64,000 nucleotides of DNA, from NCBI GenBank assembly GCA_004143945.1, contig SEHB01000005.1:1-64000 (forward strand). The letters are read 5' to 3'. This DNA comes from Lysobacteraceae bacterium (lineage in GTDB: Bacteria > Pseudomonadota > Gammaproteobacteria > Xanthomonadales > Rhodanobacteraceae). Made by a program: the position numbers and the translations under genes. The first letter of the stretch is position 1; the number at the start of each line of letters is the position of its first letter. Shown in pieces: positions 4,502 to 40,900 of the stretch. The notes beneath the pieces were generated by a model. That model was not told the DNA's origin, searched no databases, and saw nothing but the letters and a program-made list of their open reading frames with translations.

Positions 4502-4616
4502 GGAATCCGTGATGGGTGATTCGTGATGGGTGATTGGCGACAGCATGATTGAAGCGAGCTCCCCTCCCGACCTGGTAGAGGGTTCCTGCTGCTCCGAATC
4601 AAGAATCACGAATCAC
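4502..4616. repeat. Inverted heptamer array, family B (GTGATTC/GTGATGG units)
   Basis: The left arm is GTGATGG, GTGATTC, GTGATGG, GTGATTG at 4509-4536, preceded by GGAATCC. A 59-base spacer follows, then the inverted right arm GAATCAA, GAATCAC, GAATCAC at 4596-4616. Read on either strand the G-first units come first. The element fills the gap between pth and ychF and supplies the pth stop codon and its last residues. Each G-first unit contains TGA at the same place, so three units stop all three frames. Confidence 0.85.
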
Positions 4617-5193
4617 GGCTATTGGTGTGCAACCGCTGCATCGCCTCCTCGAAGCGACCTTCGACGACCAGCGGCAACACGTCGAGCGAGCGCGCGACCG
4701 CGTCGACGATCGCGGCCTCGTCGCCCGCGGACGGGCGTCCGAGCACCCAGCCGGTCACGCGGTCCTTGTGGCCCGGGTGTCCGATGCCGAGGCGCAGCCG
4801 GTGGAAGCGTCCGTGTCCGAGGTGCGCGAACAGGTCGCGCAGGCCATTCTGGCCGCCGTGGCCGCCGTCGAACTTGAGCCTCGCCGCACCGGGCGGGAGA
4901 TCGAGGTCGTCGTGCACGACGAGCATCTGCTCGGGTTCGATCTTCCAGTAGCGCAGCGCGGCACCCACCGAGGCGCCGCTCGCATTCATGAACGTGATCG
5001 GCTTCAGCAGCCACAGCGGCTGCGCCGCGATCACGAGCTTCGCGGTTTCGCCGCGCAGCTTCGATTCGATGCCGAAGCGCGCGTCCTCGCGCCGTGCCAG
5101 CGCATCGACGAACCAGAACCCCGCGTTGTGGCGGGTCCGCAGGTGTTCTGCCCCGGGATTGCCGAGGCCGACGATGAGGCGAAGCCCAGCCAT
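4606..5193 (-). CDS. pth: Peptidyl-tRNA hydrolase
   Basis: A 195-residue cytosolic enzyme that releases tRNA from prematurely dropped peptidyl-tRNA. The start LRLIVGLGNPGAEHLRTRHN contains GLGNPG and the catalytic His in TRHNAGFWFVD. PITFMNASG and VVHDDLDLPPG (with the conserved Asp) follow, then KFDGGHGGQNGLR and FHRLRLGIGHPG. The last four residues SRDS and the stop codon come from the adjacent family B heptamer repeat, so the native C-terminus has been replaced. This tail is not part of the active site, and function should be intact. It lies 57 bases after rplY. Confidence 0.97.
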   Translation of the reverse strand: MAGLRLIVGLGNPGAEHLRTRHNAGFWFVDALARREDARFGIESKLRGETAKLVIAAQPLWLLKPITFMNASGASVGAALRYWKIEPEQMLVVHDDLDLPPGAARLKFDGGHGGQNGLRDLFAHLGHGRFHRLRLGIGHPGHKDRVTGWVLGRPSAGDEAAIVDAVARSLDVLPLVVEGRFEEAMQRLHTNSRDS

Positions 5194-5250
5194 GGCGAAC
5201 CACGACCCGCGCGCCGCCCGCGCTTGCGCGCAGGCGGCGGCGGAGCCGCG

Positions 5251-5916
5251 TTACTTCTTCTCGTCCTTCTTCGCCGGCGCGGCCGCGGCCGCTGCAGCGC
5301 CTTCGCCTTCGGCGGCCGGCGTCTCCTCGGCCTCGGCGCGCATTTCCTTGGCCACGACCACGGCATGGTCGTGTTCCTTGCCGAAGCGAAGCTCGGGGAT
5401 TTCGACGCCCTGCGGCAGCTTGAGGTCGCTCAGGTGCACGATGTCGCCGACCGCGAGATTCGACAAGTCGATCTCGATACTCTCCGGCAGGTGCTTGGGC
5501 AGGCAGGAGATTTCGACTTCGGTCAGCTCGTGCATGATCACGACGCCCGAGGTCTTGCCGGCCACCGACGCTTCCTGGTTCAGGAAGTGCAGCGGCACGC
5601 GCACGCGGATCGCATCGTTCTCGTTGACGCGCTGGAAATCCATGTGCAGGACGATCTGCTTGAACGGATGGCGCTGCATGTCACGCAGCAGCACCTTCTG
5701 CACGTCGCCGCCGAGGCTGAGGTCGAGGATCGACGAGTAGAACCATTCGTTCTGGCTCGCATGCCAGACGTCCTTGTGCTGGATCTGGATCGACACCGGC
5801 TGCAGGTCGCCGCCATAGACGATCGCCGGGACGAAACCCGCGCGACGCAGGCGGCGGCTCGCACCCTTGCCCTCGTCGTTGCGCTTTTCGACATTGATGG
5901 TACGTGTGGTTGCCAT
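5251..5916 (-). CDS. rplY: 50S ribosomal protein L25 (Ctc/TL5 long form)
   Basis: A 221-residue protein that binds 5S rRNA. The N-terminal L25 domain (about 1-95) contains GKGASRRLRRAGFVPAIVYG. The second TL5/CTC beta domain (about 96-190) contains DFQRVNENDAIRVRVPLHF and ISCLPKHLPESIEIDLS. A low-complexity Ala/Glu tail ends KKDEKK. The long two-domain form is usual in this order of bacteria. The start MATTRTINVEK has AAGAAGG upstream. It is the middle of the prs-rplY-pth group; a heptamer array separates it from prs. Confidence 0.96.
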   Translation of the reverse strand: MATTRTINVEKRNDEGKGASRRLRRAGFVPAIVYGGDLQPVSIQIQHKDVWHASQNEWFYSSILDLSLGGDVQKVLLRDMQRHPFKQIVLHMDFQRVNENDAIRVRVPLHFLNQEASVAGKTSGVVIMHELTEVEISCLPKHLPESIEIDLSNLAVGDIVHLSDLKLPQGVEIPELRFGKEHDHAVVVAKEMRAEAEETPAAEGEGAAAAAAAPAKKDEKK

Positions 5917-5998
5917 TTTCGTGTTGCCTTCTTGCAGTAGGGCCGCCTCGCGGCGGCGATGTCGCTCCCCCGCGACCAGGGGAGCGGTGTTCTGATCA

Positions 5999-6070
5999 GG
6001 GAATGGGGAATGGAGAATCGGGAATGGTGGAGCAGGCAGCGGAACCTGCCGTCGGCCACTCCCTATTCCC
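5999..6070. repeat. Inverted heptamer array, family A (GGGAATG units), between prs and rplY
   Basis: Left arm GGGAATG, GGGAATG, GAGAATC, GGGAATG at 5999-6026, then a 30-base spacer. The shorter inverted right arm CACTCCC, TATTCCC lies at 6057-6070. The spacer itself holds a small palindrome (GCAGGCAGCGGAACCTGC). The element ends five bases before the prs stop codon. It sits between two co-directional genes of one operon. Confidence 0.85.
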
Positions 6071-6074
6071 CGCC

Positions 6075-7031
6075 TCAATCCACATACAACGAACTCACCG
6101 ACTCGCCATACGCGATGCGGCGAACCGTCTCGGCCAGCAGTTCGGCGACCGAGAGCTGGCGGATCTTGCCGCAGGACCTCGCCGAGGCGGTCAGCGGGAT
6201 CGTGTCCGTGACCACCAGCTCGTCGAGCGCGGAGCCGTCGATGTTGCTGATCGCCGGTCCCGACAGCACCGGATGCGTGCAGTACGCGACGACCTTGCGC
6301 GCGCCGTTCTTCTTCAGCGCGCTGGCGGCCGCGCACAAGGTGCCCGCGGTGTCGACGATGTCGTCGACGAGCACGCAGACCTTGTCCTTGACCTCGCCGA
6401 TGATGTTCATCACGGTCGCCTCGTTCGCACGCGGGCGGCGCTTGTCGATGATCGCGAGGTCGGCATCGTCGAGCCGCTTGGCGATCGCACGCGCGCGCAC
6501 CACGCCGCCGACGTCGGGCGACACCACGATGATGTCTTCCTTCGCATGATGGCGCCAGATGTCGGCCAGCAGCACCGGCGAGGCGTACACGTTGTCGAGC
6601 GGGACGTCGAAGAAACCCTGGATCTGGTCCGCGTGCAGGTCGACCGTCAGCACGCGGTCGGTGCCGACCACGCCGATCATCTGGGCGGCGACCTTGGCCG
6701 TGATCGGAACCCGCGCCGAACGCGGACGCCGGTCCTGTCGCGCATAGCCGAGGTACGGGATCACCGCGGTCACGCTCGCGGCCGAGGCGCGCTTGAGCGC
6801 GTCCACCAGCGCGAGCAGCTCCATGAAGTTGTCGGCGGTCGGCGCGCAGGTGGGCTGCACCACGAACACTTCCTGGCGACGCACGTTCTCCTCGATCTCG
6901 ATCTGCACCTCGCCGTCGCTGAAGCGCCCGACCAGCGCCTTGCCGAGCGGCACCGAGAGTTCGCTGCAGATCGCGGCGGCGAGATCGCGGTTCGCATTGC
7001 CGCTGAAGACGAGGAGGCCCGAAGTATCCAT
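6075..7031 (-). CDS. prs: Ribose-phosphate pyrophosphokinase
   Basis: A 318-residue cytosolic enzyme making PRPP from ribose 5-phosphate and ATP for purine, pyrimidine, His and Trp synthesis. Visible motifs: [13 protein letters not shown] at the N-terminus, [16 protein letters not shown], the ATP-binding [29 protein letters not shown], and the PRPP loop [15 protein letters not shown]. The start [11 protein letters not shown] was chosen over a long upstream extension that would overlap tRNA-Gln. The gene lies directly downstream of tRNA-Gln, the common ispE-tRNA-Gln-prs order. Confidence 0.97.
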
Positions 7032-7123
7032 GTTGGTATCCCTAGAACCTGCCGGTGGACCGCGAACGGATGTCGATGTGGGCGTGCCAGCGTCGCCGCC
7101 GCGCCATCGCGGGTCGCGGCGAA

Positions 7124-7198
7124 TGGCTGGGGCGGCAGGATTCGAACCTGCGAATGCCGGGATCAAAACCCGGTGCCTTACCGCTTGGCGACGCCCCA
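7124..7198 (-). tRNA. tRNA-Gln (TTG)
   Basis: The 75-nt minus-strand gene starts TGGGGCGTCGCCAAG and ends CGCCCCAGCCA, with the acceptor stem closing and an encoded CCA. The anticodon loop TTTTGAT gives anticodon TTG. It lies nine bases downstream of ispE and about 90 bases upstream of prs. Confidence 0.95.
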
Positions 7199-7207
7199 GC
7201 GCAACCT

Positions 7208-8086
7208 TCAGGCCCGCGCCGCGCGCCATTCCTGCACGCGCGCGAGCAGCGGTGAACACGCGACGCCGCGGACGACGAAACCGCGCCACTCCGCGGGACA
7301 CGCGCGCACGATGTCCAGACCTGCTTCATGCGAGCCGACCGGCGCAAGGATACAGCCGCCTGATCCGCTGAGCCGGGCGTGTGCACGCTCGCCGAGCCAG
7401 TCCAGCGCCTTCGCGACGGCCGGATGGCGCGCGCGCACGACGGACTCGAACACGTTCGAGGTCGCCGCACCCGAAACAAAGAGCGGAATTGTCAGCGGGC
7501 GGCAGTCGCGTGTCAAATCGGGCGAGCTGAACACCTCGGCCGTCGGCACCCGGGCGCCCGGATCGATCACGACATACCAGCGCTCGGGAAGCTCGAGCGG
7601 CGTCAGCAGCTCGCCGACCCCCTCGGCCCAGGCGCTGCGACCGCGCACGAACACGGGCACGTCCGCGCCGAGCCGGAGCCCGAGCGACGCGAGCGCATCG
7701 ACGTCGAGGCCCGTGCCCCAGAGCTCGTTCAGCGCGACCAGGGTGGTCGCCGCATCGGAACTCCCGCCGCCGAGCCCGCCGCCGAGAGGAATGTGCTTAT
7801 CGACCGCAATGTCGGCGCCCATGCGCGTGCCGCTCGCCTCCCGCAGCGCATGCGCTGCGCGCACCGCGAGGTCGTCGGCCTCGGCGACGTCCGCCAGCGG
7901 CTGCCTTCGGCTGATGACGCCGTCATCGCGCGGCCGCAGTCGCACGCAATCGCCCCACTCGAGCAGCTGGAACACCGTCTGCAGCAGGTGATAGCCGTCC
8001 GCGCGGCGACCGGTCACGTGCAGGAACAGGTTCAGCTTCGCCGGTGCCGGCCAGTCGCTCCAGGCGTGCGCCGGACCGCCGTTCAT
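7208..8086 (-). CDS. ispE: 4-diphosphocytidyl-2-C-methyl-D-erythritol kinase
   Basis: A 292-residue GHMP kinase of the non-mevalonate isoprenoid pathway, which phosphorylates CDP-methylerythritol. [20 protein letters not shown] carries the conserved N-terminal Lys/Asn. [18 protein letters not shown] is the ATP-binding Gly/Ser loop, followed by LGADVPVF with the catalytic Asp. [13 protein letters not shown] is the C-terminal glycine motif. The ATG overlaps the lolB stop by four bases (ATGA), so translation is probably coupled. Together with dxr at 26134, two enzymes of the pathway are in this window. Confidence 0.96.
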
Positions 8087-8685
8087 TCGACCGACCACGC
8101 CCTGATCGCGAGCCGCACCGTTCGACTGCCGCTGCTCGCATGCAGCCGGCGCGGCAGCGGTGGCGAACTGTCGTCGTAGTCGAGGAACTCGACGCGCCAG
8201 CCGTCCTGCGAGATCGCCGCGGGCAAGCCGTCGGCGCGGAACTCGACGCGGGCTTCGCCGGGCGCGCGCCTTCCGCGTACCCAGTCGACGAGCTGCGCGA
8301 CCGGCACGTCCCAGTCGAGCTCGCGCGCGAGGAGTTCGCGCGCGTCTCGGCCCTCGATCGGCGCCGGTCGCAGGCCGCTCAGCACCGCATGCGAGGGCGT
8401 GCCCGCGAGGATCCAGGTCTTGCCGGTGACCGGCGCGTGCACGCTGAAGCGGAACACCTCGCCGCGCTGGTTCCATTCCAGCGTGCCGCTGCCGCCATCG
8501 CGGCCATCCGACACGCCGAGTCGGCCGCGCAAGGTCCACGCCTGCACGCCCGCCAATGCCTGTTCGCGCGCCTGCAGACGCTGCATCGCGGTTGCATCGT
8601 CGACCTGCACGCGGATGCGCGGCCCCGCGCATGCGCCCAGCACCAGCGCGCCGAGCGCGAGCAGGCACCTCGCCGGCATGTTCAT
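8083..8685 (-). CDS. lolB: Outer-membrane lipoprotein receptor LolB
   Basis: A 200-residue lipoprotein with a signal peptide and lipobox LGAC (Cys about residue 19). LolB accepts lipoproteins from the periplasmic carrier LolA and inserts them in the outer membrane. Typical family features are WTLRGRLGVSDG, the Gly-rich strand SGTLEWNQRGEVFRFSVHAP and LPRRLHASSGSRTVRLAI at the C-terminus. It overlaps the upstream TPR gene by four bases and ispE by four bases, in the conserved TPR-lolB-ispE operon. The start MNMPARC keeps the short signal peptide; the second Met is a possible alternative. Confidence 0.93.
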   Translation of the reverse strand: MNMPARCLLALGALVLGACAGPRIRVQVDDATAMQRLQAREQALAGVQAWTLRGRLGVSDGRDGGSGTLEWNQRGEVFRFSVHAPVTGKTWILAGTPSHAVLSGLRPAPIEGRDARELLARELDWDVPVAQLVDWVRGRRAPGEARVEFRADGLPAAISQDGWRVEFLDYDDSSPPLPRRLHASSGSRTVRLAIRAWSVE

Positions 8686-10439
8686 GTCGACGCGAGCCGT
8701 TCGATCGCTTCGAGCAGGGTGGGGTTGTCCGGGTCCTTGCGCCGCGCTTCGTCCCAGACCCGGCGGGCCTCCGCGCGCTCGCCCTTGACCCACAGGACTT
8801 CGCCGAGGTGCGCCGCGATTTCCGCATCCGGCTGCTTCGCGTGCGCGCGGCGCAATTGCGCGAGCGACGCCTCGAGGTCGCCCATGCGATAACGCACCCA
8901 GCCCATGCTATCGATGATCGCGGCTTCGTCGGGCTTGAGCTCGAGTGCGCGCTGCACCAGCTGCAAGGCCTCGCCGAGGCGCGGGTCGCCGGGCTTGCTG
9001 TCGTCGGCGAGCGTGTATCCGAGCGCGTTCATCGCCTCGGCATCATCCGGCGACAGCGCGAGCACGCGGCGCAGGTCGCGCTCGCCCGCGGCCATGTCGC
9101 CCTGTTCGACCGCGAACAGCGCGCGCGAATACAGCAGGCGGGTGTCGTCGGGTTGCGCGGCGAGCGCGCGGTCGTAGACGGCGAGCGCCTCGCGCGGTCG
9201 CTTCGCGTTCGCGAGCAGGTCGGCTTCCAGCAGCCACGCATTGCGCTGGCGCAGGCGGTCGCCGGCCGACACCTCGGCGAGGCGCCGCAGCTGCGCGACG
9301 GCCTCGTCGGTGCGGCCGAGGTCGCCGAGCACGACGCTCGCGCGCATCTGCGCGTCGAACCAGTGCTCGTCGTCGATCGTGATGCCGCGGTACCACGCGA
9401 GTGCTTCTTCGCGCCGGTCGAGCATTTCGGCGACCTGGCCGAGCAGGTACTGGCGCTTCGCGCTGCGCGCGCTGTCGTCGGCCTGCACCTCGCGGTAGAG
9501 CGCGCCGAGCGCCTTGTGGTCCTCGGCGCGGGCGGCGTATGCGGCACGCGCCGCATAGGTGGTGTCGTCCTGCGTTCCCGCCGCGAGCACGCGCGCGGCC
9601 GCCGCGTTGTCGCCCTGTTCGGCCAGCAAGGCCGCGTAGCCCCCGCGCAGGCGCAGGCTGCCGGGCTGGCGTTGCAGCGACTCGGCATACGTCGCGCCCG
9701 CGGCGGCCTTGTCGCCGCTGTCGAGCGCGAGTCGCGCGCTCCAGGAATACGCATCGGCACCGTGGAAGCGCGCTACCGCGGCATCAGCCAACTCGCGTGC
9801 GAACGGCTTGTCGTCGAGCTTGAACGCGAGCTGGCTCGCGGCAACCCAGTTCGACTCCGCCGTCGCGAGGCGTTCGGGCGTCGCGAGCCGGCGCAGCACG
9901 CGTGCGGCGAGCGGCTTGTCCGACGCGTTCATCAGTGCCTGCGCGACGAGGCGCCAGGCCTGGCTCTCGCCGCGGGATACGAGGTCGGACAGCGCCGCAT
10001 GCGCCGCATCGGCGCGATCCTCGCCGAGCGCGATCCAGCCGCGTGCCTGCTGCACGCCCGGTGCGGCAGGCGCCAGCTGTTGCCAGCGCGCGACCGCCTG
10101 CGACGCGAGCGGCCAGTCGCGGGCAGCCAACGCGAGGCGCGTGGCTTCCTCGGCGAGGCGCGCGTCGCCGGACAGCGCGGCCGCGCCCGCGAATCCACGA
10201 GCGGCGGCCGGGATGTCGTCGGCGTGCAGCGCGAATTGCGCGGCCAGCAGCTGCAGCAGCAGGTCCTGCTCGAGCGGCACCGGCGCGACCTCGACGGGTG
10301 CGGTCGATGCGCGCACTTCGGAGCGCGGCTGCACCGGGGTACAGGCCGCCAGCAGCGCGCCCGCGAGCGCGAACGCGAGGCCCGCGACGCGCCCGACACT
10401 GCGCGCAGCGATCGATCGGAATTCAATGACACACTGCAT
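8682..10439 (-). CDS. Tetratricopeptide-repeat lipoprotein
   Basis: A 585-residue protein. Residues 1-35 contain a hydrophobic segment ending LAGALLAACTP with a lipobox, so it is probably a lipoprotein; the stretch before the signal (MQCVIEFRSIAARS) is long, and a downstream start is possible. The rest is helical repeats, clearest in the last 170 residues, for example DDTRLLYSRALFAVEQGDM, DDAEAMNALGYTLADDSKPG, DEAAIIDSMGWVRYRMGDLE and EIAAHLGEVLWVKGERAEAR, each a 34-residue TPR. Such proteins act as scaffolds. Its conserved place upstream of lolB and divergent from hemA suggests an envelope role, but no specific function can be given. Confidence 0.85.
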   Translation of the reverse strand: MQCVIEFRSIAARSVGRVAGLAFALAGALLAACTPVQPRSEVRASTAPVEVAPVPLEQDLLLQLLAAQFALHADDIPAAARGFAGAAALSGDARLAEEATRLALAARDWPLASQAVARWQQLAPAAPGVQQARGWIALGEDRADAAHAALSDLVSRGESQAWRLVAQALMNASDKPLAARVLRRLATPERLATAESNWVAASQLAFKLDDKPFARELADAAVARFHGADAYSWSARLALDSGDKAAAGATYAESLQRQPGSLRLRGGYAALLAEQGDNAAAARVLAAGTQDDTTYAARAAYAARAEDHKALGALYREVQADDSARSAKRQYLLGQVAEMLDRREEALAWYRGITIDDEHWFDAQMRASVVLGDLGRTDEAVAQLRRLAEVSAGDRLRQRNAWLLEADLLANAKRPREALAVYDRALAAQPDDTRLLYSRALFAVEQGDMAAGERDLRRVLALSPDDAEAMNALGYTLADDSKPGDPRLGEALQLVQRALELKPDEAAIIDSMGWVRYRMGDLEASLAQLRRAHAKQPDAEIAAHLGEVLWVKGERAEARRVWDEARRKDPDNPTLLEAIERLAST

Positions 10440-10592
10440 GCAAAGCCTTGTCTTGCTTGATATCGCAGGTCCGCGCCCGCACAATCCGGACCGCCTGCGG
10501 CAGGCGGCGCTGCGCCGGCTTAGCTTAGCCGATTCGCACGCGACCCCGGCGCGGATGGCGACCGAAACCGCGAGATCCTGCCTGCCTCCACC

Positions 10593-11873
10593 ATGGCGCT
10601 GATTGCCCTCGGACTCAACCACCAGACCGCCCCGCTCGCGCTGCGTGAGCGCGTCGCCTTCCCGGCCGACGCGACGACGCCCGCGCTCGCGGCGCTCTCG
10701 GCCGAGCCCGGCGTGCAGGAGGCCGCGATCCTCTCGACCTGCAATCGCACCGAGATCTACTGCAACGTCGAGGCCGGCGCCGAGCACGTCCCCGGCGGCT
10801 GGCTGCACCGCCACCACGATCTCGCGGGCGCACGGATCGACGAATTCATGTACCGCCACGCCGACGCGGACGCGGTGCGCCACCTGTTCCGCGTCGCGAC
10901 CGGGCTCGAATCGATGGTGCTCGGCGAGCCGCAGATCCTCGGCCAGGTCAAGGAGGCGTATGCGAGCGCGCGCGCCGCGCAGACGCTGAAGGCACCGCTC
11001 GAGCGCCTGTTCCAGAACACCTTCGCGGTCGCCAAGCGCGTGCGGTCGGATACCCGCATCGGATCCAATCCGGTCTCGGTCGCGTTCACCGCCGTACGCC
11101 TCGCCGAACGCGTGTTCGCCGACCTCGGCGAAGCCTGCGTGCTGCTGGTCGGCGCGGGCGAAACGATCGAACTGGTCGCGCGCCACCTGACCGAGTCGAA
11201 CGTGCGGCGCCTGATCGTCGCGAACCGCACGCTCGAGAACGCACAGGTGCTCGCGACGCGCTTCGGCGGCTACGCGATCGCGCTGGCGGACCTGCCGCGC
11301 CACCTCGCCGAAGCCGACATCGTGATCTCGTCCACCGCAAGCCGCGAACCGGTGCTGCAGCGCGAACACGTCGCCGCCGCGATCGCCGCGCGGCGGCGCA
11401 AGCCGATGTTCCTCGTCGACATCGCGGTGCCGCGCGACATCGACCCGGGCGTGGCCACGCTCGAGGACGTCTACCTCTACACGATCGACGACCTGCGCGG
11501 GATCATCGACGAGAACCTGCGCTCGCGTCGCGAGGCCGCGATCCAGGCCGAGGCGATGATCGAACTCTCGGTCGAGCATTTCATGGGCTGGTGGCGCACG
11601 CTCGACCTGCGCAATCCGGTGGTGGAACTGCGCCGCAGCGCCGAGGCGGAGCGCGACGAGGCGTTGCAGAAGGCGCAGGCGATGCTCGCGCGCGGCAAGT
11701 CGCCCGACGAGGCGCTCGCGTTCCTCGCCAACACGCTGACCAACAAGTTGCTGCATGCACCGAGCGCGAACCTGCGCGCCGCCGCCCTGCGCGGCGACGA
11801 CGACCTGCTGCGGGCGGCGGAGCGGTTGTTCGAAGCTGCCGGGAACAGGGAATCGGGAATGGGGAATCGTTAG
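10593..11873 (+). CDS. hemA: Glutamyl-tRNA reductase
   Basis: A 426-residue enzyme that reduces glutamyl-tRNA to glutamate-1-semialdehyde, the first step of tetrapyrrole synthesis. The N-terminal [15 protein letters not shown] and [12 protein letters not shown] with the catalytic Cys identify the family. [17 protein letters not shown] and the NADPH-binding [17 protein letters not shown] follow, then [18 protein letters not shown] and a C-terminal dimerisation helix. The last residues [10 protein letters not shown] and the approach to the stop are encoded by a family A heptamer array (11841-11868), so the original C-terminus has been overwritten. It is followed by prfA, the usual pair. Confidence 0.96.
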
Positions 11874-11933
11874 AAGCCCTGCAGTGCTCCACGATCGATT
11901 CCGGCCATTCCCCCTTCCCGATTTCCCATTCGC
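11841..11933. repeat. Inverted heptamer array, family A, between hemA and prfA
   Basis: Left arm GGGAACA, GGGAATC, GGGAATG, GGGAATC at 11841-11868 lies inside the end of hemA. After a 37-base spacer the inverted right arm CATTCCC, CCTTCCC, GATTTCC, CATTCGC runs 11906-11933 and ends seven bases before the prfA ATG. The left arm has four GGG runs separated by three or four bases, matching a canonical G-quadruplex motif. Confidence 0.88.
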
Positions 11934-11940
11934 GGCCCCC

Positions 11941-13023
11941 ATGCAACCCACGATCCAGCGCAAGCTCGAACAACTCGCCGAACGCCACGAGGAACTCGAG
12001 CACCTGCTCGCGAGCGCGGACGTGCTCGCCGATTCGAAGCGCCTGCGCGAGGTGTCGCGCGAACACGCGCAGCTCGCGCCGCTCGCGGCCGCGCTTCGCG
12101 CGTGGGAAGGCAACGGCAAGGCGCTGGCGGCATCGATCGCGATGCAAAAGGATCCCGAGCTGCGCGAGCTCGCGCTCGAGGAAGCCGAGGCGCTCGAAGG
12201 CGAGCGTGAACGTCTCGAGCGCGAGCTGAATCTGCTGCTGGTGCCGAAGGATCCGCGCGACGAAGGCAACCTGTTCCTCGAGATCCGCGCGGGGACCGGC
12301 GGCGACGAGGCCGCGATCTTCGCCGGCGACCTGCTGCGCATGTACCTGCGCCATGCCGAACGGCATCGCTGGAACGTCGAGATCCTGTCCTCGAGCGACG
12401 GCGAGCATGGCGGCTACAAGGAAGTGATCGCGCGCGTGGAGGGCCGCGGCGCCTACTCGCGGCTCAAGTACGAATCGGGCACGCATCGCGTGCAGCGCGT
12501 GCCCGCGACGGAGGCACAGGGACGCATCCACACGTCCGCCGCGACCGTCGCGATCCTGCCCGAACTCGACGAGGTCGACGAGATCGAACTCAGGGACGCC
12601 GACCTCAAGGTCGACACGTTCCGCGCGTCGGGCGCGGGCGGCCAGCACGTCAACAAGACCGACTCGGCGATCCGCATCACGCACCTGCCGAGCGGCATCG
12701 TGGTCGAGTGCCAGGACGAGCGCAGCCAGCACAAGAATCGTGCGCGCGCGCTGTCGCTGCTGAAGGCGCGACTGCTCGACGAGGAACGCAGCAAGCAGAG
12801 TGCGGCCCAGGCCGAATCGCGCCGCCTGCAGGTCGGCTCGGGCGACCGCAGCCAGCGCATCCGCACCTACAACTTCCCGCAGGGCCGGATCACCGACCAC
12901 CGCATCAACCTCACGCTGTACCGGCTGCCCGAGATCATCGCGGGCGACCTCGACGAACTCGTCGACGCGCTCACGCGCGAGGACCAGGCCGACCAGCTGC
13001 AGCTGCTGGCCGCGACCGCCTGA
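11941..13023 (+). CDS. prfA: Peptide chain release factor 1
   Basis: A 360-residue release factor recognising UAA and UAG. The codon-reading tripeptide PAT is visible in [18 protein letters not shown]. The catalytic GGQ is in [19 protein letters not shown]. The N-terminal coiled region begins [20 protein letters not shown], and the end contains [19 protein letters not shown]. The ATG at 11941 matches the family start; nothing resembling a Shine-Dalgarno precedes it, because the right arm of a heptamer array ends seven bases upstream. It may be translated by coupling to hemA. Confidence 0.97.
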
Positions 13024-13025
13024 GG

Positions 13026-13766: not shown

Positions 13767-13835
13767 CGGCGTGGCCTCCTTGCGGCGTGCGACCGACTCT
13801 AGCGCAAAGGCACCGCGTCGGCAGCGACCGCGATC

Positions 13836-15363: not shown

Positions 15364-15365
15364 CA

Positions 15366-15513
15366 GGGCTGAGGGCTGAGGGCTGAGAGCCGGGATTGTG
15401 GCCGGGTTGGGTCTGCGCGTGAAGCCGCAGCACGCAGGACATCACGCGTCGGCCAGCACGCCGCGCCGACCTGAGCCCTCAGCCCTCAGCCCTCAGCCCT
15501 CAGCCCTCAGCCC
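15366..15513. repeat. Inverted heptamer array, family C (GGGCTGA units), between dapD and the ArsC-like gene
   Basis: The left arm has three GGGCTGA units at 15366-15386. An 85-base spacer follows. The inverted right arm at 15472-15513 is one TGAGCCC and five TCAGCCC units. On the minus strand, the coding direction, this is six G-first units carrying GGG runs every seven bases and TGA every seven bases. The element begins two bases from the ArsC-like start codon and ends 14 bases from the dapD stop. Confidence 0.9.
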
Positions 15514-15526
15514 TGGGTTTCAAGCA

Positions 15527-16342
<816 letters not shown>

Positions 16343-16349
16343 GCAGGAT

Positions 16350-19013: not shown

Positions 19014-19070
19014 GGCGTCAGCGCCTCGTCGGCGCAGCGCGCGCCGGGGCGGCGCGCGGGTGGCGGCGGA

Positions 19071-19838: not shown

Positions 19839-19884
19839 GGGATCTCGGTCGAAGGCGATGGTGGCGCCAGCGCGCCACCCGGGC

Positions 19885-19890: not shown

Positions 19891-19902
19891 TCTATGGTTT
19901 CA

Positions 19903-24423: not shown

Positions 24424-24570
24424 GGGAATGGGGAATGGGGTATGGGGAATTGCTTGAAGTGGCGCATGGCGCCTTTCGCCCCGCCGAGTCGCACAAGACC
24501 CCGTCGCCCGCTCTTGACCATTCCCCATTCCCCATCCCCATTCCCCACTCCCGGCCTTTGACCCATTCCC
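24424..24570. repeat. Inverted heptamer array, family A, between frr and uppS
   Basis: Left arm GGGAATG, GGGAATG, GGGTATG, GGGAATT at 24424-24451. A 67-base spacer follows. The inverted right arm has CATTCCC, CATTCCC, a 6-base CATCCC, CATTCCC and CACTCCC at 24519-24552, plus a further CATTCCC at 24564-24570. It begins nine bases after the frr stop and ends five bases before the uppS ATG. Both arms carry at least four G runs on their G-rich strand. Confidence 0.9.
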
Positions 24571-24575
24571 CGCTC

Positions 24576-28679: not shown

Positions 28680-28758
28680 CCCGAAGGCTGGCCCCGGAAT
28701 CGAACAAGGCCGCGACTGCGCCCGTCGCGAGTCCGACAATGCCCTGACGGAAGAGACG

Positions 28759-31158: not shown

Positions 31159-31201
31159 GCGAGGCGGGCCGCCGGCAGCGTCGGGTGACGAGGAGGCTCG
31201 G

Positions 31202-33220: not shown

Positions 33221-33987
33221 TCCATCCGACCGCCCTCGTCGACCCGGCCGCGCGCGTCGGCAGCGACGTCAGCATCGGTGCGTACAGCGTGATCGGCCCC
33301 GAGGTCGAGATCGGCGACCGCACGACGATCGGCCCGCACGTCGTGATCGAGGGCGCGACGCGCATCGGCCGCGACAACCGCATCTTCCAGTTCGCCTCGC
33401 TCGGCGCGGAACCGCAGGACAAGAAATTCCGCGGCGAGCGCAGCGAGCTCGTGATCGGCGATCGCAACGTGATCCGCGAATTCACCACCTTCAATCGCGG
33501 CACCGGCGAGGGTGGCGGCGCCACCCGCATCGGCAACGACAACTGGATCATGGCCTACGTGCACGTCGCGCACGACTGCCGTGTCGGCGACCATGTCGTG
33601 TTCGCCAACAACGCGACGCTGGCCGGCCACGTCGAGGTCGGCGACCACGTGATCCTCGGCGGCTTCACCGGCATCCACCAGTTCTGCAAGGTCGGCGCGC
33701 ACGCGTTCTGCGGCATGGGCAGCCTCGTAAACAGCGACGTGCCGCCGTTCGTGATCGTCGGCGGCGGCTACGCGCGCCCGCGCGGCATCAACAGCGAAGG
33801 CCTCAAGCGGCGCGGCTTCGACGCGACCCGCATCGCCGCGATCAGGCGCGCCTACCGCACGCTCTACATGTCCGGTGCGCCACTCGAACAGGCCCGCGCG
33901 CAGCTCGCCGAACAGGCGATCACGAATGCGGACGTCGCCGACATGCTCGCCTTCATCGACCGCAGCGAGCGATCGTTGGCGCGGTGA
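33217..33987 (+). CDS. lpxA: UDP-N-acetylglucosamine O-acyltransferase
   Basis: A 256-residue trimeric beta-helix enzyme, first step of lipid A synthesis. Hexapeptide repeats start at [19 protein letters not shown]. The catalytic His is in [39 protein letters not shown] and the C-terminal helical [20 protein letters not shown] are diagnostic. It overlaps fabZ by four bases and is separated from lpxB by a heptamer array. Confidence 0.97.
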
Positions 33988-33992
33988 GAGCC

Positions 33993-34126
33993 GCGAATGG
34001 GGAAGAGGGGATAGGGAATGGTCCAGATCACTTTCGCCGCTTTGCGTTCGCTGGCCCGGGACAATGGCATGTGCGACCCGCGGGCGCGACGTGATGGCTT
34101 CTGACCATTCCCCATTCCCCATTCCC
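33993..34126. repeat. Inverted heptamer array, family A, between lpxA and lpxB
   Basis: Left arm GCGAATG, GGGAAGA, GGGGATA, GGGAATG at 33993-34020. An 85-base spacer follows. The inverted right arm is three CATTCCC units at 34106-34126. It begins five bases after the lpxA stop, and its right arm lies inside the lpxB reading frame, where it encodes residues 5-11. Confidence 0.88.
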
Positions 34127-35359
34127 GAATCTCCGCTCTTCGTGCTCGTCGCGGGCGAAGCCTCCGGCGACCTGCTCGGCGCGGATCTCCTCGATGCGTT
34201 GCGGGCGAGGTATCCGGCTGCGCGCTTCGCGGGGATCGGCGGGCCGCGCATGATCGCGGCGGGGCTGGAGAGCTGGCATCCGATCGGCAAGCTGTCGGTC
34301 ATGGGACTCGTCGAAGTGTTGCGCCACCTGCCCGAACTCCTCGCGATCCGGCGCGACGTCGCGCGCCGCACGCTCGCGTCTCGGCCCGACGCGTTCATCG
34401 GCATCGATGCACCCGACTTCAACATTGGCCTCGAACGGCGCCTGCGCGCGAACGGGCTGCGCACCGTCCACTACGTGAGTCCGTCGATCTGGGCCTGGCG
34501 CGAGAAGCGCGCCGCGAAGATCGGGCGCAGCGCCGGACGCGTGCTGTGCCTGTTCCCGATGGAGCCGCCGATCTATGCGCGGCACGGCGTCGACGCGCGC
34601 TTCGTCGGCCATCCGCTCGCCGACGCGATGCCGCTCGAGCCCGACCAGCATGCGGCGCGGGCGGCGATCGGCCTGCCGATGGACGTGCCGGTGCTCGCGC
34701 TGCTCCCGGGCAGCCGGCTCGGCGAGATCGCGCGGCTCGGCCGCGATTTCATCGACGCGGCGAGACTGCTCATGGAGCGCGTACCACGCCTGCGCATCGT
34801 CGCGCCGATGGCGAATGCCGATTGCCGCCACGCCTTCGAGGCGATCGCGCGCGAAGCCGGCATGCCGACGCGCGACCTGCGCGGGTCCGACGCGGAGCCC
34901 GCCGATGCGCAGCCGGCGATGCTGCTGCTGTCCACGGAGTCGGGTGTCTCCGATCCGCAACGTCGCCCGCTCTCGCAACTCGCGATGGTCGCGGCCGACG
35001 CGGTGCTGCTCGCGTCCGGCACCGCGACGCTCGAGGCGATGCTCGCGAAACGCCCGATGGTGGTCGCCTATCGCATCGCGCCGATGACCCATCGCATCGT
35101 CAAGGGACTCGGCCTGCTCAAGGTCGGCCGCTACGCGCTGCCGAACGTGCTCGCGGGACGCGACATCGCGCCCGAGCTGATGCAGGACGACTGCACCCCG
35201 GACGCGCTCGCGCACGCGCTCGCGCCACTGCTGCAGGCGCGCGCAGCCGATACCGCGCTGCTCGCGGAGTATCGGCGCCTGCACCTCGCGTTGCGTCGCG
35301 ACGCGAGCGCGAGCGCCGCCGCGGCGATCGCCGACTACCTCGCGGCGCCCGGCGCGTGA
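34094..35359 (+). CDS. lpxB: Lipid-A-disaccharide synthase
   Basis: A 421-residue GT19 glycosyltransferase joining UDP-diacylglucosamine and lipid X. LFVLVAGEASGDLLGADLL, GIGGPRMIAAGLE, VHYVSPSIWAWREKRAAKI, FVGHPLADAMP and LLPGSRLGEIARL are diagnostic. A short insertion around residues 265-290 carries an unusual LSTESGVSDPQRRPL. The first 14 residues (MASDHSPFPIPESP) are largely encoded by a heptamer repeat arm and are not part of the family. Initiation at GTG (34142), directly before LVAGEASG, is an alternative but would give an unusually short N-terminus. No strong ribosome site is seen for either. Confidence 0.93.
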   Translation: MASDHSPFPIPESPLFVLVAGEASGDLLGADLLDALRARYPAARFAGIGGPRMIAAGLESWHPIGKLSVMGLVEVLRHLPELLAIRRDVARRTLASRPDAFIGIDAPDFNIGLERRLRANGLRTVHYVSPSIWAWREKRAAKIGRSAGRVLCLFPMEPPIYARHGVDARFVGHPLADAMPLEPDQHAARAAIGLPMDVPVLALLPGSRLGEIARLGRDFIDAARLLMERVPRLRIVAPMANADCRHAFEAIAREAGMPTRDLRGSDAEPADAQPAMLLLSTESGVSDPQRRPLSQLAMVAADAVLLASGTATLEAMLAKRPMVVAYRIAPMTHRIVKGLGLLKVGRYALPNVLAGRDIAPELMQDDCTPDALAHALAPLLQARAADTALLAEYRRLHLALRRDASASAAAAIADYLAAPGA

Positions 35360-35402
35360 GCGCGCCGGCCAGCCCGCGCCGCACGCGCGCCCTGGACCGG
35401 CC

Positions 35403-37136
35403 ATGACCGCGACGCGCCCCGCCCGCCACCGCGGCGCGATCGCATTGCGACTGTTCGCGCTGGTCGCGTTCGCGGCGCTGGTCGCATTCGGACCGCTCGC
35501 CGAGAACACCGCGGCCGAACGCCTGTTTGCGGCGACGCTCGCGACGATCGCCCTCGCCGGGCTCCTGTTCGCGAGCGCGCGGCCCGCGTTTTCGCTGCTG
35601 CTGGTCGCGGTCGTGTTCGGCACGATCGAACTGGCCGGACGAATCAAGTTCGCCTACCTGATGACGCCGCTGCTCGCACCGGACCTCGAGTACTTCCTGA
35701 CCGTCGACACGGTCGAGGTGATCTCGCACTACCCCGCGCTGCTCGCGACCTGCATCGGCGTGCTGGTGCTGATTCCGCTGCTGCTGGTCATCGCGTGGCT
35801 GCGCGAACCGCGCGCGCGCCTGGCCGGACGCGCACGTGGCGAGCGCGCGCTGCTGCGCGGTTTCGGCACGCTCGCGGCCATGATGCTGCTGGCGGCGAGC
35901 CTGCATCCGCGCGGTCCGTTCCACGCGGTGTTCAACAAGCCGATGTGGATCACCGTCAACGACCGCAGCTTCATCACCAACTTCTTCACCTCGTTCAACG
36001 ACACCGAGATCATCGAGCCGGTCGCGCCGGCCGACCTCGACCGCGGCATCCGCTGGACGCTCGATCGCCCGCTGCAGGCGCCACCGACGTCGCCCGACGT
36101 CGTGGTCGTGCTCGAGGAAAGCACGCTCGATCCGCGCATCCTGAAGGCCTGCGACATTCCGGCCTGCCGGCGCGCGATGTTCAGGCCCGACCGGCGCACG
36201 CGTGCGCACGGGCTGCTGTCGGTGCACACCTTCGGCGGCGGTACCTGGACCAGCGAGTTCTCGCTGCTGACCGGCCTCGCGCACAACCTGTTCGGCAACG
36301 CCGGGCTATATGCGCCGTACAACCTCGCGCCACGCGTACGCCACACGCTTCCGCGCGTGTTCCAGGCGGCGGGCTACCGCGCGATCGCGCTCTATCCGAT
36401 GACCGGCGACTTCCTCAATGCGCGCAACGCCTACGACTACTACGGCTTCGATGCGTTCTACGACGGCACCGACTACGGCCTCGGCTGGGGCAGCCGCGAC
36501 GCGGACCTCGTCGATGTGTTCGAACGCGTCTACGCGGACGAAAAGCGCATGCATCCGGACACGCCGCTATTCGTGTTCATGCTGACGCTGCACCAGCACG
36601 GACCGCACATGGTGCCGCTGGCCGAGCTGCCGCCGCCGTTCGACCGGCCGCTGTTCGCGGGCCGCTTCCGGCCGAAGAAGCTCGACGAATGGCTGAACCT
36701 CAACCTCGGCAACTACCTCGAACGGCTGCAGCAGTCCGATACCGCCCTGTCGCGACTCGAAAAGATGCTGCTCGATCGCGAGCAGCCAACGGTGCTCGCG
36801 CACTTCGGCGACCACCAGCCCTCGTTCGACGGCGCGATCAACCGCCTCGACAAGGTGGTGCCGAAGCTGCTCGAGCGCACCTCGAACTGGGTCACCTACT
36901 ACATGGTGAAGGCGAACTTCCGGGTGCGCCGCGCGTTCGACTATCCGGCGCTCGACATCGCATTCCTCGGATCGATCGTGCTCGACGTCGCGGGCGTGCC
37001 GAAGGATGCGTTCTACCAGGCCAACACGCTGCTGCGCGAACGCTGCAAGGGTCGCTATCTGGACTGCAAGGATGCGAAGATGGTCGCGTCCTATCACGAC
37101 CACATCTTCCGCGAACTCGACGGCCTGCGCGAATGA
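35403..37136 (+). CDS. Inner-membrane sulfatase-family enzyme, LtaS-like
   Basis: A 577-residue protein. Five transmembrane helices are visible at about 13-32, 41-58, 62-79, 111-133 and 151-167, followed by a periplasmic alkaline-phosphatase-fold domain. The metal and nucleophile residues expected of the LtaS/EptA/sulfatase group appear as VVVVLEES near 234-240, the Thr-rich [10 protein letters not shown] near 277-285, HQHGPH, and FGDHQPSF with the Asp-His pair. Such enzymes move phosphoglycerol or phosphoethanolamine groups onto membrane lipids or glycans. It lies between lpxB and rnhB, overlapping rnhB by four bases, so a role in modifying lipid A or a periplasmic glycan is plausible but unproven. 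Confidence 0.8.
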
Positions 37137-37738
37137 AGCCACAGCACGCACGCGCGATCCCCGGCCACGTCGCCGGCGTCGACGAGGCCGGTCGCGGCCC
37201 GCTGGCCGGACCGGTGGTCGTCGCCGCCGTGATCCTCGACCCGCGCCGGCGCGTGCGCGGCCTCGCCGATTCGAAGGTGCTCTGCGAGGAACAGCGCGAG
37301 CGCCTCGCGCCGCGCATCCGCGAGCGCGCGATCGCATGGTCGGTCGTGGTCGTCGACACCGACGAGATCGAGTTGCTGAACATCCTCGGGGCCACGCTCG
37401 CGGGCATGGCGCGCGCGCTCGCCGCGCTCGCGCCGGTGCCCGCGCTCGCGCTCGTCGACGGCAACCGCCTGCCGAAGTCGCTGCCGTGCGCCGCGCGCGC
37501 GGTGATCGGCGGCGACGCGAGCGAACCCGCGATCAGCGCCGCATCGATCCTCGCCAAGACCGAGCGCGACCGCATCATGCGCGAACTCGACCTGCTGCAC
37601 CCGGGCTACGGCTTCGCGCGGCACAAGGGCTATCCGACTCCGGAACACTTCGCCGCGCTCGAGCAACTCGGTCCCTGCCCGATCCATCGACGCGGCTTCG
37701 AGCCCGTGCGGCGCCTCGTCGCGCCCGAACTGTTCTGA
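37133..37738 (+). CDS. rnhB: Ribonuclease HII
   Basis: A 201-residue nuclease that removes RNA from RNA-DNA hybrids and single ribonucleotides. The catalytic acidic residues are in [18 protein letters not shown], and the third is in [28 protein letters not shown] and the C-terminal [19 protein letters not shown] complete the family pattern. It overlaps the preceding sulfatase gene and lies upstream of dnaE, its usual partner. Confidence 0.96.
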
Positions 37739-37750
37739 CGCTGGCTTGGC

Positions 37751-37789
37751 CGTCGCGGGAGGGGCTTCAGCCCCGAGCTCTACGCGCGA
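37751..37789. repeat. Palindromic element, family D (GGGGCTTCAGCCCC core)
   Basis: The core hairpin GGGGCTTCAGCCCC (37761-37774) lies within an outer inverted repeat CGTCGCG / CGCGACG (37751-37757 and 37783-37789). It occupies the 191-base gap between rnhB and dnaE, the rest of which holds nothing recognisable. Related copies are at 48447-48690 and 56803-56941. Confidence 0.75.
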
Positions 37790-37929
37790 CGCCGCAAGTC
37801 ACCCGCCGACCGCGATGGACGAGGAACGCGCCGCGCCGCCGGCCCTCGCCGTCTCCCCTGCCTGCCCTTCCACCTTGCCGCTGGCGGAGGCAGCCACTAC
37901 GCTGGCCTGCCCCCGCGTGCGCCGTGTCC

Positions 37930-40900
37930 ATGCCCCCCGGTTTCGTCCATCTCCACGTGCACAGCGAGTTCTCGCTGACCGACTCGACGATCCGCGTCGG
38001 CGAGCTGGTGGAGGCGTGCGCGCGCGGCGACATGCCCGCGGTCGCGCTGACGGACCAGGCGAACCTGTTCGCGCTGGTCAAATTCCAGAAGGCCGCGGAG
38101 GCAGCGGGTGTGAAGCCGATCGCGGGTTGCGACCTCTGGCTCGCAGATCCCGAGGAGCGCGGGCGGCCGCAGAGGCTCGTCGTCCTGTGCCAGGACCGGC
38201 GTGGCTACCTCAATCTCTCGCGACTGCTCTCGCGCGCGTACGCGGAGAACCGCCATGGCGACCATGCACTCGTCGATCCGGCCTGGTTCGAGGACGCGCA
38301 CGAAGGATTGGTGGTGCTCGCCGGACAGGACAGCGACGTCGGCCGCCTGCTGCTGGCCGGGCGCGACGATGCGGCGCGCGCGCGCGCGCGCTGGTGGAGC
38401 GCGCGCTTCGCCGACCGCTACTACCTCGAAGTCACGCGCGTGCGCCGGCCGCAGGAGGATGCGTTCCTCGCCGCCGCGCTCGAACTCGGCGCGCTGCTGG
38501 ACCTGCCGCTGCTCGCCTCCAACGACGTGCGCTTCCTCGCGCGCGAGGATTTCGAGGCACACGAGGCGCGCGTGTGCATCCATGCGGGCCGCGTGCTCGC
38601 CGATCCGAAGCGCCCTCGCGAGTACACGCCCGAGCAGTACCTGAAGTCGCCGCGCGAGATGGCCGAGGTGTTCGAGGACCTGCCCGAACTGCTCGAGAAC
38701 ACGGTCGAGCTCGCCAAGCGCTGCAACTTCGAACTCGAGTTCGGCACCTACCACCTGCCGGATTTCCCGGTACCCGCGGGGCATACGCTCGACAGCCACA
38801 TCCGCGCGCAATCGCACGCCGGGCTCGCGCGCCGGCTCGCCGCGCACGCGCCTGCGCCCGGGTTCGTGCGCGAGGACTACGTGCGGCGGCTCGACACCGA
38901 GCTCGACGTGATCATGCAGATGGGCTTTCCGGGCTACTTCCTGATCGTCGCCGACTTCATCAACTGGGCGAAGTCCAACGACATCCCGGTGGGCCCCGGC
39001 CGCGGATCCGGCGCGGGCTCGCTGGTGGCGTACGCGCTCGGCATCACCGACCTCGATCCCTTGCGCTACGGCCTGCTGTTCGAGCGCTTCCTCAATCCCG
39101 AACGCGTGTCGATGCCGGACTTCGACGTCGACTTCTGCATGGACAAGCGCGACCGCGTGATCGACTACGTGAGTCGCACGTACGGGCGCGATCGCGTCAG
39201 CCAGATCATCACCTACGGCACGATGGCGGCCAAGGCGGTGCTGCGCGACACCGGTCGCGTGCTCGGCATGCCGTACGGCCAGGTCGATCGCATCGCGAAG
39301 CTGCTGCCGAAGATGCCGCTCGACCTTTCGCTCGAGGACGCGCTCGGCCGCTCGGAGAAGGCGCGGCGCGAACCCGATCGCGTCGTCGCCGAATTCCGCA
39401 CGCTCTACGACACCGACGACGAAGCACGCGAACTCGTCGACCTCGCGCTCAAGCTCGAGGACCTCACGCGCAACGCGGGCAAGCATGCGGGCGGCGTCGT
39501 GATCGCGCCGGGCCCGCTGCACGAATACGCGCCGCTCTACTCCGAAGGCGGCGACGGCGTCGTCACGCAGTACGACAAGGACGACGTCGAGGCCGTCGGC
39601 CTCGTCAAGTTCGACTTCCTCGGCCTGCGCACGCTCACGATCATCGACTGGGCGGTCAAGGCGATCAACTCCCGAAAGCCGGGAATGGGGAATCGGGAAT
39701 CGGGAATGGTCGACGCCGAAGCCGCGCTGGACATCATGGCGATACCGCTGGATGACCCGGCGGTGTTCGACCTGCTCAAGAAGGCGCGCACGGTCGCCGT
39801 GTTCCAGTTCGAGTCGCGCGGCATGCAGGGCGCGCTCAAGGACGCCAGGCCCGACCGCTTCGAGGACATCATCGCGCTCGGCGCGCTGTACCGGCCGGGT
39901 CCGATGGACCTGATCCCGAGTTTCTGCGCGCGCAAGCTCGGGCGCGAGCCGATCGAGTATCCCGATCCGCGCGTCGAACCCGTCCTGAAAGAGACCTACG
40001 GCATCATGGTCTACCAGGAACAGGTCATGCAGATGGCGCAGATCGTCGGAGGCTACACCTTCGGCGGCGCCGACCTGCTGCGTCGCGCGATGGGCAAGAA
40101 GAAGGCCGAGGAAATGGCCCGCCATCGCGCGATCTTCCGCGACGGCGCCGCGAAGAACGGCGTCAGCGAGGCGAAGGCCGACGCGGTGTTCGACCTGATG
40201 GAGAAGTTCGCGGGCTACGGCTTCAACAAGTCGCACGCGGCCGCGTACGCGCTGGTCTCGTACCAGACCGCGTGGCTCAAGGCGCACCACCCGGCGCACT
40301 TCATGGCCGCGGTACTGTCCTCGGACATGGACAGCACCGACAAGGTCGTCAACTTCCTCGGCGAGGCGCGCGCGCTCGGACTCGAGGTGCTGCCGCCCGC
40401 GATCAACGCGTCCATCTACATGTTCGAGGCGACCGACGCGAAGACGATCCGCTACGGCCTCGGTGCGGTCAAGGGCGTGGGCCGTGGTGCGGTCGAGAAC
40501 ATCGTCGACGCGCGGCGCGACGGCGCGTTCACCGACCTCGCGGACTTCTGCCGGCGCGTGGATCCGACGCGCCTCAACAAGCGCGTGTTCGAGGCGCTGA
40601 TCCTGTCCGGCTCGCTCGATGCGCTCGCACCGAATCGCGCGAGCCTGATGGCGCAACTGCCCGAGGCGATGCGCGCGGCCGAGCAGCAGGCACGCGATGC
40701 GCAGGCCGGGCAGAACGACATGTTCGGCGCGGCCATGCCGACCGCCGCATCGACGCTCGCGCTGCCGCAGGTGGACGAATGGCCGATCGCGCAGCGCCTC
40801 GCGGGTGAACGCGACACGCTCGGACACTATCTCTCCGGCCATCCGACCGATGCGTGGCGCGACCTGTTGACGCCGGTCACGACCTGCGCGATCGGCGACA

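What the first reader, a model, noticed from the sequence alone, without database searches (positions are those of the whole stretch)
4502..39709. Three unrelated repeat families share one architecture: inverted arrays of tandem heptanucleotides
Seen directly: GGGAATG/C units (5999, 11841, 24424, 33993, 39681), GTGATTC/G units (4509) and GGGCTGA units (15366) differ in sequence. All are 7-base units repeated two to six times, then a spacer of 30-85 bases, then an inverted array. All six two-arm copies lie between consecutive genes of one operon (prs/rplY, pth/ychF, hemA/prfA, dapD/arsC-like, frr/uppS, lpxA/lpxB). On either strand the G-rich arm always comes first. A shared unit length across different sequences suggests that one mechanism makes or spreads them. 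Heptamer tandem repeats are known in other bacteria (cyanobacterial STRRs); whether this inverted operon-internal class has been described is not known to me.
Basis: partly seen in the sequence, partly recalled or inferred. Interest (0 to 1): 0.72.

Follow-up and report, generated by a model that had tools for sequence, protein, structure and literature searches.

The report
Dispersed hairpins with seven-base repeat arms
Short inverted pairs of seven-base tandem repeats are scattered between, and sometimes inside, genes of this bacterium and its relatives; they look like tiny dispersing DNA elements that keep one layout while their repeat sequence differs from species to species, even at the same gene.

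Summary
Period 7 is the only tandem period that regularly has an inverted partner (22 of 50 arrays in 80 relatives' loci; 1 of 36 for periods other than 7 and 14), and 72 of 74 array pairs picked by proximity alone run G-rich then C-rich. One unit, GGGAATC, with convergent pairs and a four-unit preference, was published for Xanthomonas in 2015. New here: the layout is shared by six units, four of them with common flanks (AGCC outside, GNARAGC inside); both arms of an element carry the same unit (53 of 72, shuffled 17.7); the lpxA/lpxB gap holds different units in different species; one codon slot in dnaE was invaded in frame, five changes on a 53-row tree; one whole element was copied into lpxB. 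GGGAATN, GGGATTN and GTGATTN grade into one another, so 'unrelated' fails for them. GTGATTN arms lack G-tracts yet usually number four, so quadruplexes cannot explain the number. Best reading: non-autonomous palindromic dispersing elements, behaving like Rickettsia palindromic elements and REPINs. The moving enzyme is unknown; Y1 transposase and reverse transcriptase do not track abundance.

The parts
4509..4536 (+). G-rich arm, four GTGATKS heptads, ychF side of the pth/ychF gap
4596..4618 (-). inverted partner arm, three GTGATTC-like heptads, overlapping the 3' end of pth; spacer 59
5999..6027 (+). G-rich arm, four GGGAATN heptads, prs/rplY gap
6059..6073 (-). decayed partner arm, about two heptads; spacer 31
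11841..11869 (+). G-rich arm, four GGGAAYN heptads, inside the 3' end of the hemA frame (10593-11873)
11907..11930 (-). partner arm before prfA, decayed; spacer 37
15366..15388 (+). G-rich arm, three GGGCTGA heptads, dapD/ArsC-family gap
15471..15514 (-). partner arm, six GGGCTGA heptads; spacer 82
24424..24450 (+). G-rich arm, four GGGAATG-like heptads, 9 bases after the frr stop
24519..24552 (-). partner arm before uppS; spacer 68
33993..34021 (+). decayed G-rich arm after the lpxA stop
34106..34126 (-). partner arm, three GGGAATG heptads, before or within the start of lpxB; spacer 84
   Evidence: the lpxB start is uncertain
39681..39708 (+). solo arm, four GGGAATS heptads, in frame in dnaE (+27 bases against the empty slot)

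Best explanation
These are non-autonomous palindromic elements of about 95-150 bp that disperse within Lysobacterales genomes. Each is two inverted arms around a variable spacer; the typical arm is AGCC, four tandem heptads, then GNARAGC. Shown: the layout with several heptads, arms matched within an element, one family per locus in relatives, repeated occupation of one codon slot in dnaE, and one whole-element copy inside lpxB. Inferred: new copies arise by copying an existing element, probably through a hairpin or single-strand intermediate, into short gaps or tolerant protein loops; the period of 7 is inherited and kept by slippage while point changes spread through the arms, so that subfamilies with new heptads arise. 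The enzyme is unknown. The RNA hairpin may be used by the host in places, but would not be why the element exists.
For: Layout: 72 of 74 proximity-picked pairs G..C; four heptads modal in each of five families; AGC at one fixed offset behind the last heptad in 31 of 104 arms, within 12 bases in 55 of 104 against 19% background. Arms same family 53 of 72, shuffled mean 17.7, maximum 29. In 7 relatives' loci with more than one element 9 of 9 pairs share the family, shuffled mean 2.0. dnaE slot: complete in-frame elements in 5 of 51 valid loci, 1 of 29 further loci, one complete and one solo of 39 anchored; five changes on the tree, forced by supported branches. L037: element, spacer included, copied inverted and in frame into lpxB, 83% over 102 bp.
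Against: Of 38 own spacers none matched another own spacer; of 67 in all only the L037 pair, two orthologous pairs and one 14-base match did, so recent copies with spacer are rare. Two of the three L037 copies lie in a larger repeat that includes the end of lpxA. No target duplication was shown; complete dnaE elements seem to have replaced part of the loop (my reading). No mobilising gene was found. GGGCTGA arms mostly lack the flank signature (2 of 6). A label spread over a tree can also mean old gain and many losses.
Confidence: 0.6

Rival explanations
1. Repeats born in place: polymerase slippage makes heptad arrays and template switching within the hairpin copies one arm onto the other, without movement between sites.
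For: Unique spacers; unit transition within one array (L062); a few exactly mirrored arms such as L247 and L036; Xanthomonas sites mostly conserved in place between two species (PMC4692102).
Against: Unit order is not mirrored beyond family shuffles (0.872 against 0.864, 153 of 2000 as high). Empty dnaE slots show no heptad-like seed, yet several lineages have complete elements there. The family is uniform within loci of a genome. A spacer was copied into lpxB.
Confidence: 0.2
2. Selected RNA or DNA structure: the hairpin or a G-quadruplex between genes stabilises, stops or attenuates transcripts, and selection keeps arms complementary.
For: Window elements fold better than shuffles as RNA (z -2.0 to -6.7 in 6 of 6); arms pair in 0.899 of positions against 0.728 shuffled; mostly co-directional gaps, median 4 bases behind the stop codon; published arrays of four G-tracts form quadruplexes in vitro (PMC4692102).
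Against: No co-variation within families: position 7 agrees in 59% and no position beats within-family shuffles. GTGATTN has no G-tract yet 17 of 22 arms have four units. Many orthologous gaps have no element and complete copies sit inside dnaE. The folds are expected from any inverted repeat.
Confidence: 0.12
3. They are REPINs moved by a REP-associated Y1 transposase.
For: REPINs are doublets of inverted short repeats with a spacer that are predicted to form hairpins (abstract of PMC3116915); the window's genome has 5 Y1_Tnp matches.
Against: G009 (100% complete) has 78 GTGATTN, 48 GGGATTN and 19 GGGAATN dimers but no Y1_Tnp match, while G002, G016, G019 and G023, with none of the four dimers, have 1-2. 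The arms are tandem heptads, not short palindromes.
Confidence: 0.08

Closest known systems
GGGAATC quadruplex-forming repeats of Xanthomonas (Rehm et al. 2015, PMC4692102)
   Same: Heptad unit, two to many copies with a preference for four, convergent G-rich/C-rich pairs (70 and 75 cases), intergenic, between aligned ORFs, dnaE among marked genes (text parts 1-6 of 8 read).
   Different: Treats one unit as a simple sequence repeat and quadruplex; no other units in the layout, no flank signature, no recurrent in-frame slot, no whole-element copying.
Rickettsia palindromic elements
   Same: 100-150 bp palindromic elements, several families, in-frame in genes (passages of PMC10969869 and PMC3767692).
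   Different: No heptad arms are mentioned in the passages seen; other bacteria. Sequences were not compared.
REPINs / REP doublets
   Same: Inverted doublets of short repeats with spacer, hairpin-forming, mostly extragenic, within-genome dispersal (abstract of PMC3116915).
   Different: REPs are themselves palindromic and tied to Y1 transposases; heptad abundance does not follow Y1_Tnp presence.
TAACTGA direct repeats of Beggiatoaceae (MacGregor 2015, PMC4679880)
   Same: Seven-base tandem units, two to six copies, intergenic (abstract).
   Different: One fixed unit, direct and not inverted (169 direct sets, one indirect); related heptamers rarely or never repeated.
Cyanobacterial heptad repeats (Nostoc GGGGA(T/C)T)
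   Same: G-rich heptads, many units (PMC4692102).
   Different: Only a few could form inverted pairs, per that paper; not compared here.

Membership tests
Xanthomonas GGGAATC repeats (Rehm 2015) | GGGAATC heptad arrays, convergent pairs, four-unit preference | tested here: met
   For the GGGAATN family. The other units fall outside the published definition.
Xanthomonas GGGAATC repeats (Rehm 2015) | Capacity for G-quadruplex (four G-tracts) | tested here: not met
   By sequence, GTGATTN units have no GGG yet 17 of 22 arms have four units; met for GGG-starting units with four intact tracts.
MITE | Short, non-coding, terminal inverted repeats | tested here: met
   About 95-150 bp, inverted arms.
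MITE | Target site duplication | tested here: inconclusive
   No duplication evident at the dnaE slot by eye; no closely related empty/filled pair available.
MITE | Related autonomous transposon with the same ends | not tested
   Not searched for; only Y1_Tnp and RVT_1 presence.
REPIN/RAYT | A Y1 REP-associated transposase in genomes with the elements | tested here: not met
   G009, 100% complete and heptad-rich, has no PF01797 match; a diverged one could be missed.
REPIN/RAYT | Tetranucleotide-tagged palindromic REP at each end | not tested
   No systematic scan; arms seen are tandem heptads.
Rickettsia palindromic elements | Palindromic, 100-150 bp, inserted in frame in genes | tested here: met
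   dnaE and lpxB. This is likeness in behaviour only.
Rickettsia palindromic elements | Sequence of one of the RPE families | not tested
   No RPE sequence was compared.

The most novel reading that the evidence does not exclude
A mobile palindromic element whose identity lies in a layout (four seven-base steps per arm, fixed flanks) and not in a sequence: some host or element activity works in seven-base steps, accepts any of several heptads and keeps both arms in the same unit, so that a genome can change its heptad while architecture and even insertion slots stay the same. Genomes rich in one unit are often rich in several (G000, G008, G015) and others have none, as one enabling factor would predict.
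Probability: 0.25. Interest if true: 0.82.

Novelty: new variant of a known kind. Interest (0 to 1): 0.62.

Why it matters
A published puzzle (why heptad arrays fill Xanthomonas gaps) was framed as a quadruplex question about one sequence. That several heptads, including one that cannot form quadruplexes, share the layout, and that it recurrently enters one slot of the replicative polymerase gene, makes it a question of mobile DNA: what moves the element and what counts to seven. The dnaE slot is a ready-made trap for following gains across an order, and the wide spread of abundance among congeners allows a gene-by-gene search for the enabling factor.

Tried and rejected
Literal arm-to-arm copying: unit order is not mirrored beyond family shuffles (outer-anchored 153 of 2000 as high, inner-anchored 637 of 2000). 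Strict RNA stem selection: no within-family co-variation; positions with two-sided change did not clearly beat shuffles (103 of 1000 as high), extra pair types did weakly (33 of 1000), the paired fraction did (0 of 1000). Known RNA family: none at these places at gathering scores. Y1_Tnp and RVT_1 as enabling factors: presence does not follow abundance. Shared spacers in the own genome: none between spacers; of 21 other hits to sampled own sequence 19 come from one mis-set spacer that contained an arm, two weak ones (C13_90772, L252_11728) were not followed. An inverted-repeat scan by best period was noisy for short arms and was replaced. A test with inconsistent unit rotation left 5 pairs and no signal and was replaced. 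A paper search with the bare heptad was useless. PMC1895974 is not held.

Caveats: positions rest on my own codon-score gene caller, which missed hemA. The dnaE sets overlap in genomes. Of 52 loci one (L093) was spurious and dropped from the count, though it stayed in the tree, which is a quick one. Near-twin loci (L065/L069, L067/L088) count twice. In one search the lpxB slot was anchored in 3 of 9 loci tried. Loci L146-L150 and L247-L266 were chosen because they held hits; contigs C17, C13 and C25 because hits had been listed on them, but were read as contiguous runs from base 1. The array threshold drops arms of two units, which favours longer modes. Whole-genome place lists were capped; counts were not.
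Full report
WHAT IS THERE. The window is 64 kb of a 3.67 Mb, 29-contig genome. Its nearest rows on a combined LpxB/DnaE tree are Dokdonella fugitiva; the best lpxB match among named contigs is 76%, so no very close relative was at hand. Six are two-arm elements between co-directional neighbours whose names NCBIfam confirms: prs/rplY, pth/ychF, hemA/prfA, dapD/ArsC-family, frr/uppS, lpxA/lpxB. Spacers are 31-84 bases. The seventh (39681-39708) is a solo arm of four heptads inside dnaE, in frame.

MORE THAN CHANCE. Whole-genome dimer counts are 178 (GGGAATN), 26 (GTGATTN) and 36 (GGGCTGA), with none for the reversed patterns. In 80 lpxB-centred loci of relatives (1.53 Mb) tandem runs at lag 7 number 50, of which 22 have an inverted partner; lag 14 adds 12 with 9; all other lags from 4 to 15 give 36 with 1. 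In 853,900 own bases lag 7 gives 42 with 20; lags 4-6 and 8-20 give 137 with 9. One pair finder over 1,159,000 contiguous own bases gives 13 pairs at period 7, three at 4, one at 6, none at the other periods from 4 to 12.

ANATOMY. Picking neighbouring period-7 arrays by distance alone in 1.63 Mb of own sequence plus the 80 loci gives 74 pairs: 72 are G-rich arm then C-rich arm, 2 are C-rich twice, none is reversed. Arms of one element carry the same unit family in 53 of 72 (shuffled mean 17.7, maximum 29 of 2000 shuffles); in the own genome alone 26 of 39 (14.6, maximum 22). The modal arm has four heptads (29 of 49 left, 35 of 49 right), in each of the five families counted: GGGAATN 30 of 52 arms, GGGATTN 12 of 16, GTGATTN 17 of 22, GGGACTC 5 of 8, GGGCTGA 5 of 6. 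Around the heptads lies a signature that does not depend on the unit..AGCC outside, G-N-A-R-A-G-C inside, with AGC at one fixed offset in 31 of 104 arms and within 12 bases in 55 of 104 (28 of 52, 8 of 16, 13 of 22, 4 of 8) against 19% background. GGGCTGA arms do not clearly share it (2 of 6). Heptad positions 1-6 agree between arms in 85-98%, position 7 in 59%. GGGGCTA stands in the same two-arm layout (L258); mixed elements join GGCGAGT with GAGGGAT and GGGATTC with GGGAATN; single GGGGAAC arrays stand in L214 and L319.

ARE THE FAMILIES UNRELATED. Not all. GGGAATN, GGGATTN and GTGATTN are one step apart, and one array in L062 runs GGGATCT, GGGATTC, GTGATTC. GGGCTGA has no such link yet. In the 7 relatives' loci with more than one matched element the family is uniform: 9 of 9 pairs agree, shuffled mean 2.0, maximum 8 of 5000 shuffles. 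The profile changes from species to species: dimers GGGAATN/GGGATTN/GTGATTN/GGGCTGA are 178/23/26/36 in the window's genome, 219/162/60/42 in G008, 211/195/2/0 in G012, 161/24/49/20 in G015, 19/48/78/0 in G009, 11/87/0/0 in G006, and 0 in G002, G016, G019, G021 and G023.

SAME PLACE, DIFFERENT UNIT. In the lpxA/lpxB gap (80 loci; congeners) several species have almost no gap (for example L034, L044, L047, L058). Others hold the two-arm layout with GGGAATC (L036/L198), GGGATTN (L038, L053/L200, L063/L210, L212), GTGATKS (L031/L201, L065, L069), GGGCTGA (L073) or GGGACTC (L076), both arms of one unit. Some have quite different repeats there (L203, L206, L040, L043). One search covered 29 loci, of which 27 had both anchors.

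THE dnaE SLOT. After IDWAVKAIN the polymerase has a short variable loop. Of 52 loci with both anchors one was spurious; of the other 51, five carry a complete in-frame heptad element (L048, L053, L067, L088, L089), three carry other inserts (L071, L105, L107), two are six bases longer (L042, L046) and 41 are empty. The units differ: GGGATTN, a GGGATTC/GGGACTC mix, GTGATTN; the window has a solo GGGAATS arm. A search of 299 genomes of the order (277 with a match) was followed in 29 other loci (one occupied, L277) and 40 fetched stretches (39 anchored, two occupied, L313 with GGGAATN and L319 with a solo GGGGAAC arm). On a 53-row quick tree the six occupied rows need five changes, forced by supported branches; the label is no more clustered than shuffled ones (82 of 500 as low). 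The slot was therefore filled, or filled and lost, repeatedly.

COPYING. Spacers are nearly all unique: of 67, two orthologous pairs, one pair in L037 and one 14-base match. L037 (a Dokdonella bin) has the element twice in a 147-base repeat that includes the end of lpxA, and a third time, inverted and in frame inside lpxB, 83% identical over 102 bp with the spacer conserved. The canonical element there is about 95-110 bp.

HOW IT MOST LIKELY WORKS. Shown: layout, arm match, one subfamily per locus, recurrent slot, one whole-element copy. Inferred: dispersal by copying through a hairpin intermediate, tolerance of short gaps and loops, turnover of the heptad by mutation plus slippage. Not shown: the enzyme, a target duplication, movement in real time. 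Y1 transposase and reverse transcriptase domains do not follow abundance. The in-place rival explains unique spacers but not the dnaE slot or the lpxB copy. The regulatory rival explains position (33 of 38 co-directional; median 4 bases behind the stop codon) and the folds, but not the lack of co-variation, the empty sites or the coding copies. Four units without G-tracts in GTGATTN argue against a quadruplex as the reason for the number four.

WHAT IS KNOWN. Rehm et al. 2015 (PMC4692102; text parts 1-6 of 8 read) describe GGGAATC arrays in two Xanthomonas genomes, the four-unit preference, 70 and 75 convergent pairs, bias to aligned ORFs, dnaE among marked genes, and leave function open. Searches aimed at heptads and at palindromic elements listed no paper whose title or abstract start describes several units in one inverted layout; the library holds only open-licence papers and the listings were capped. 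In behaviour the closest are Rickettsia palindromic elements (passages) and REPINs (abstract); membership in either is not claimed.

VERDICT. Real, partly published, and broader than the published part: a class of palindromic dispersing elements defined more by layout than by sequence.

Noticed in passing
window 48488-48681: Two tandem copies of a 103-base repeat with GGGACTGAAGTCCCTCCCAC and GGGAGGCGCTTCAGCCCC motifs; the first motif recurs in L117 near 12000 (own genome). A separate palindromic repeat family.
   Followed up: no
L203 and L206, lpxA/lpxB gap: Long arrays of a different palindromic repeat (TGTAGAGCCGAGCTTGCTCGGCT) in the same gap that elsewhere holds heptad elements; the gap looks like a general insertion spot.
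   Followed up: no
L071, L105, L107, dnaE loop: The same dnaE codon slot carries other in-frame inserts of 42-48 bases in three Luteimonas/Lysobacteraceae loci.
   Followed up: partly
window 11841-11873: The heptad arm lies in the hemA frame and would encode the last residues of glutamyl-tRNA reductase, beyond the family model (model match 4-414 of 426).
   Followed up: no
L133 12811-12875 (own genome C13): A solo run of nine GTGATTC heptads directly behind a stop codon without a visible inverted partner.
   Followed up: no
L067 and L088, dnaE element spacer: The spacer begins with AAGAGC AAAAGC AAAAGC, as if the inner flank motif itself were amplified in six-base steps.
   Followed up: no
L037 6340-9920: A 147-base direct repeat (98%) that includes the end of lpxA flanks about 3.3 kb between lpxA and lpxB; origin of the insert unknown.
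   Followed up: no
L054, lpxB: Decayed heptad-like sequence at about the same place in lpxB where L037 has its in-frame copy; possibly a second recurrent coding slot.
   Followed up: partly
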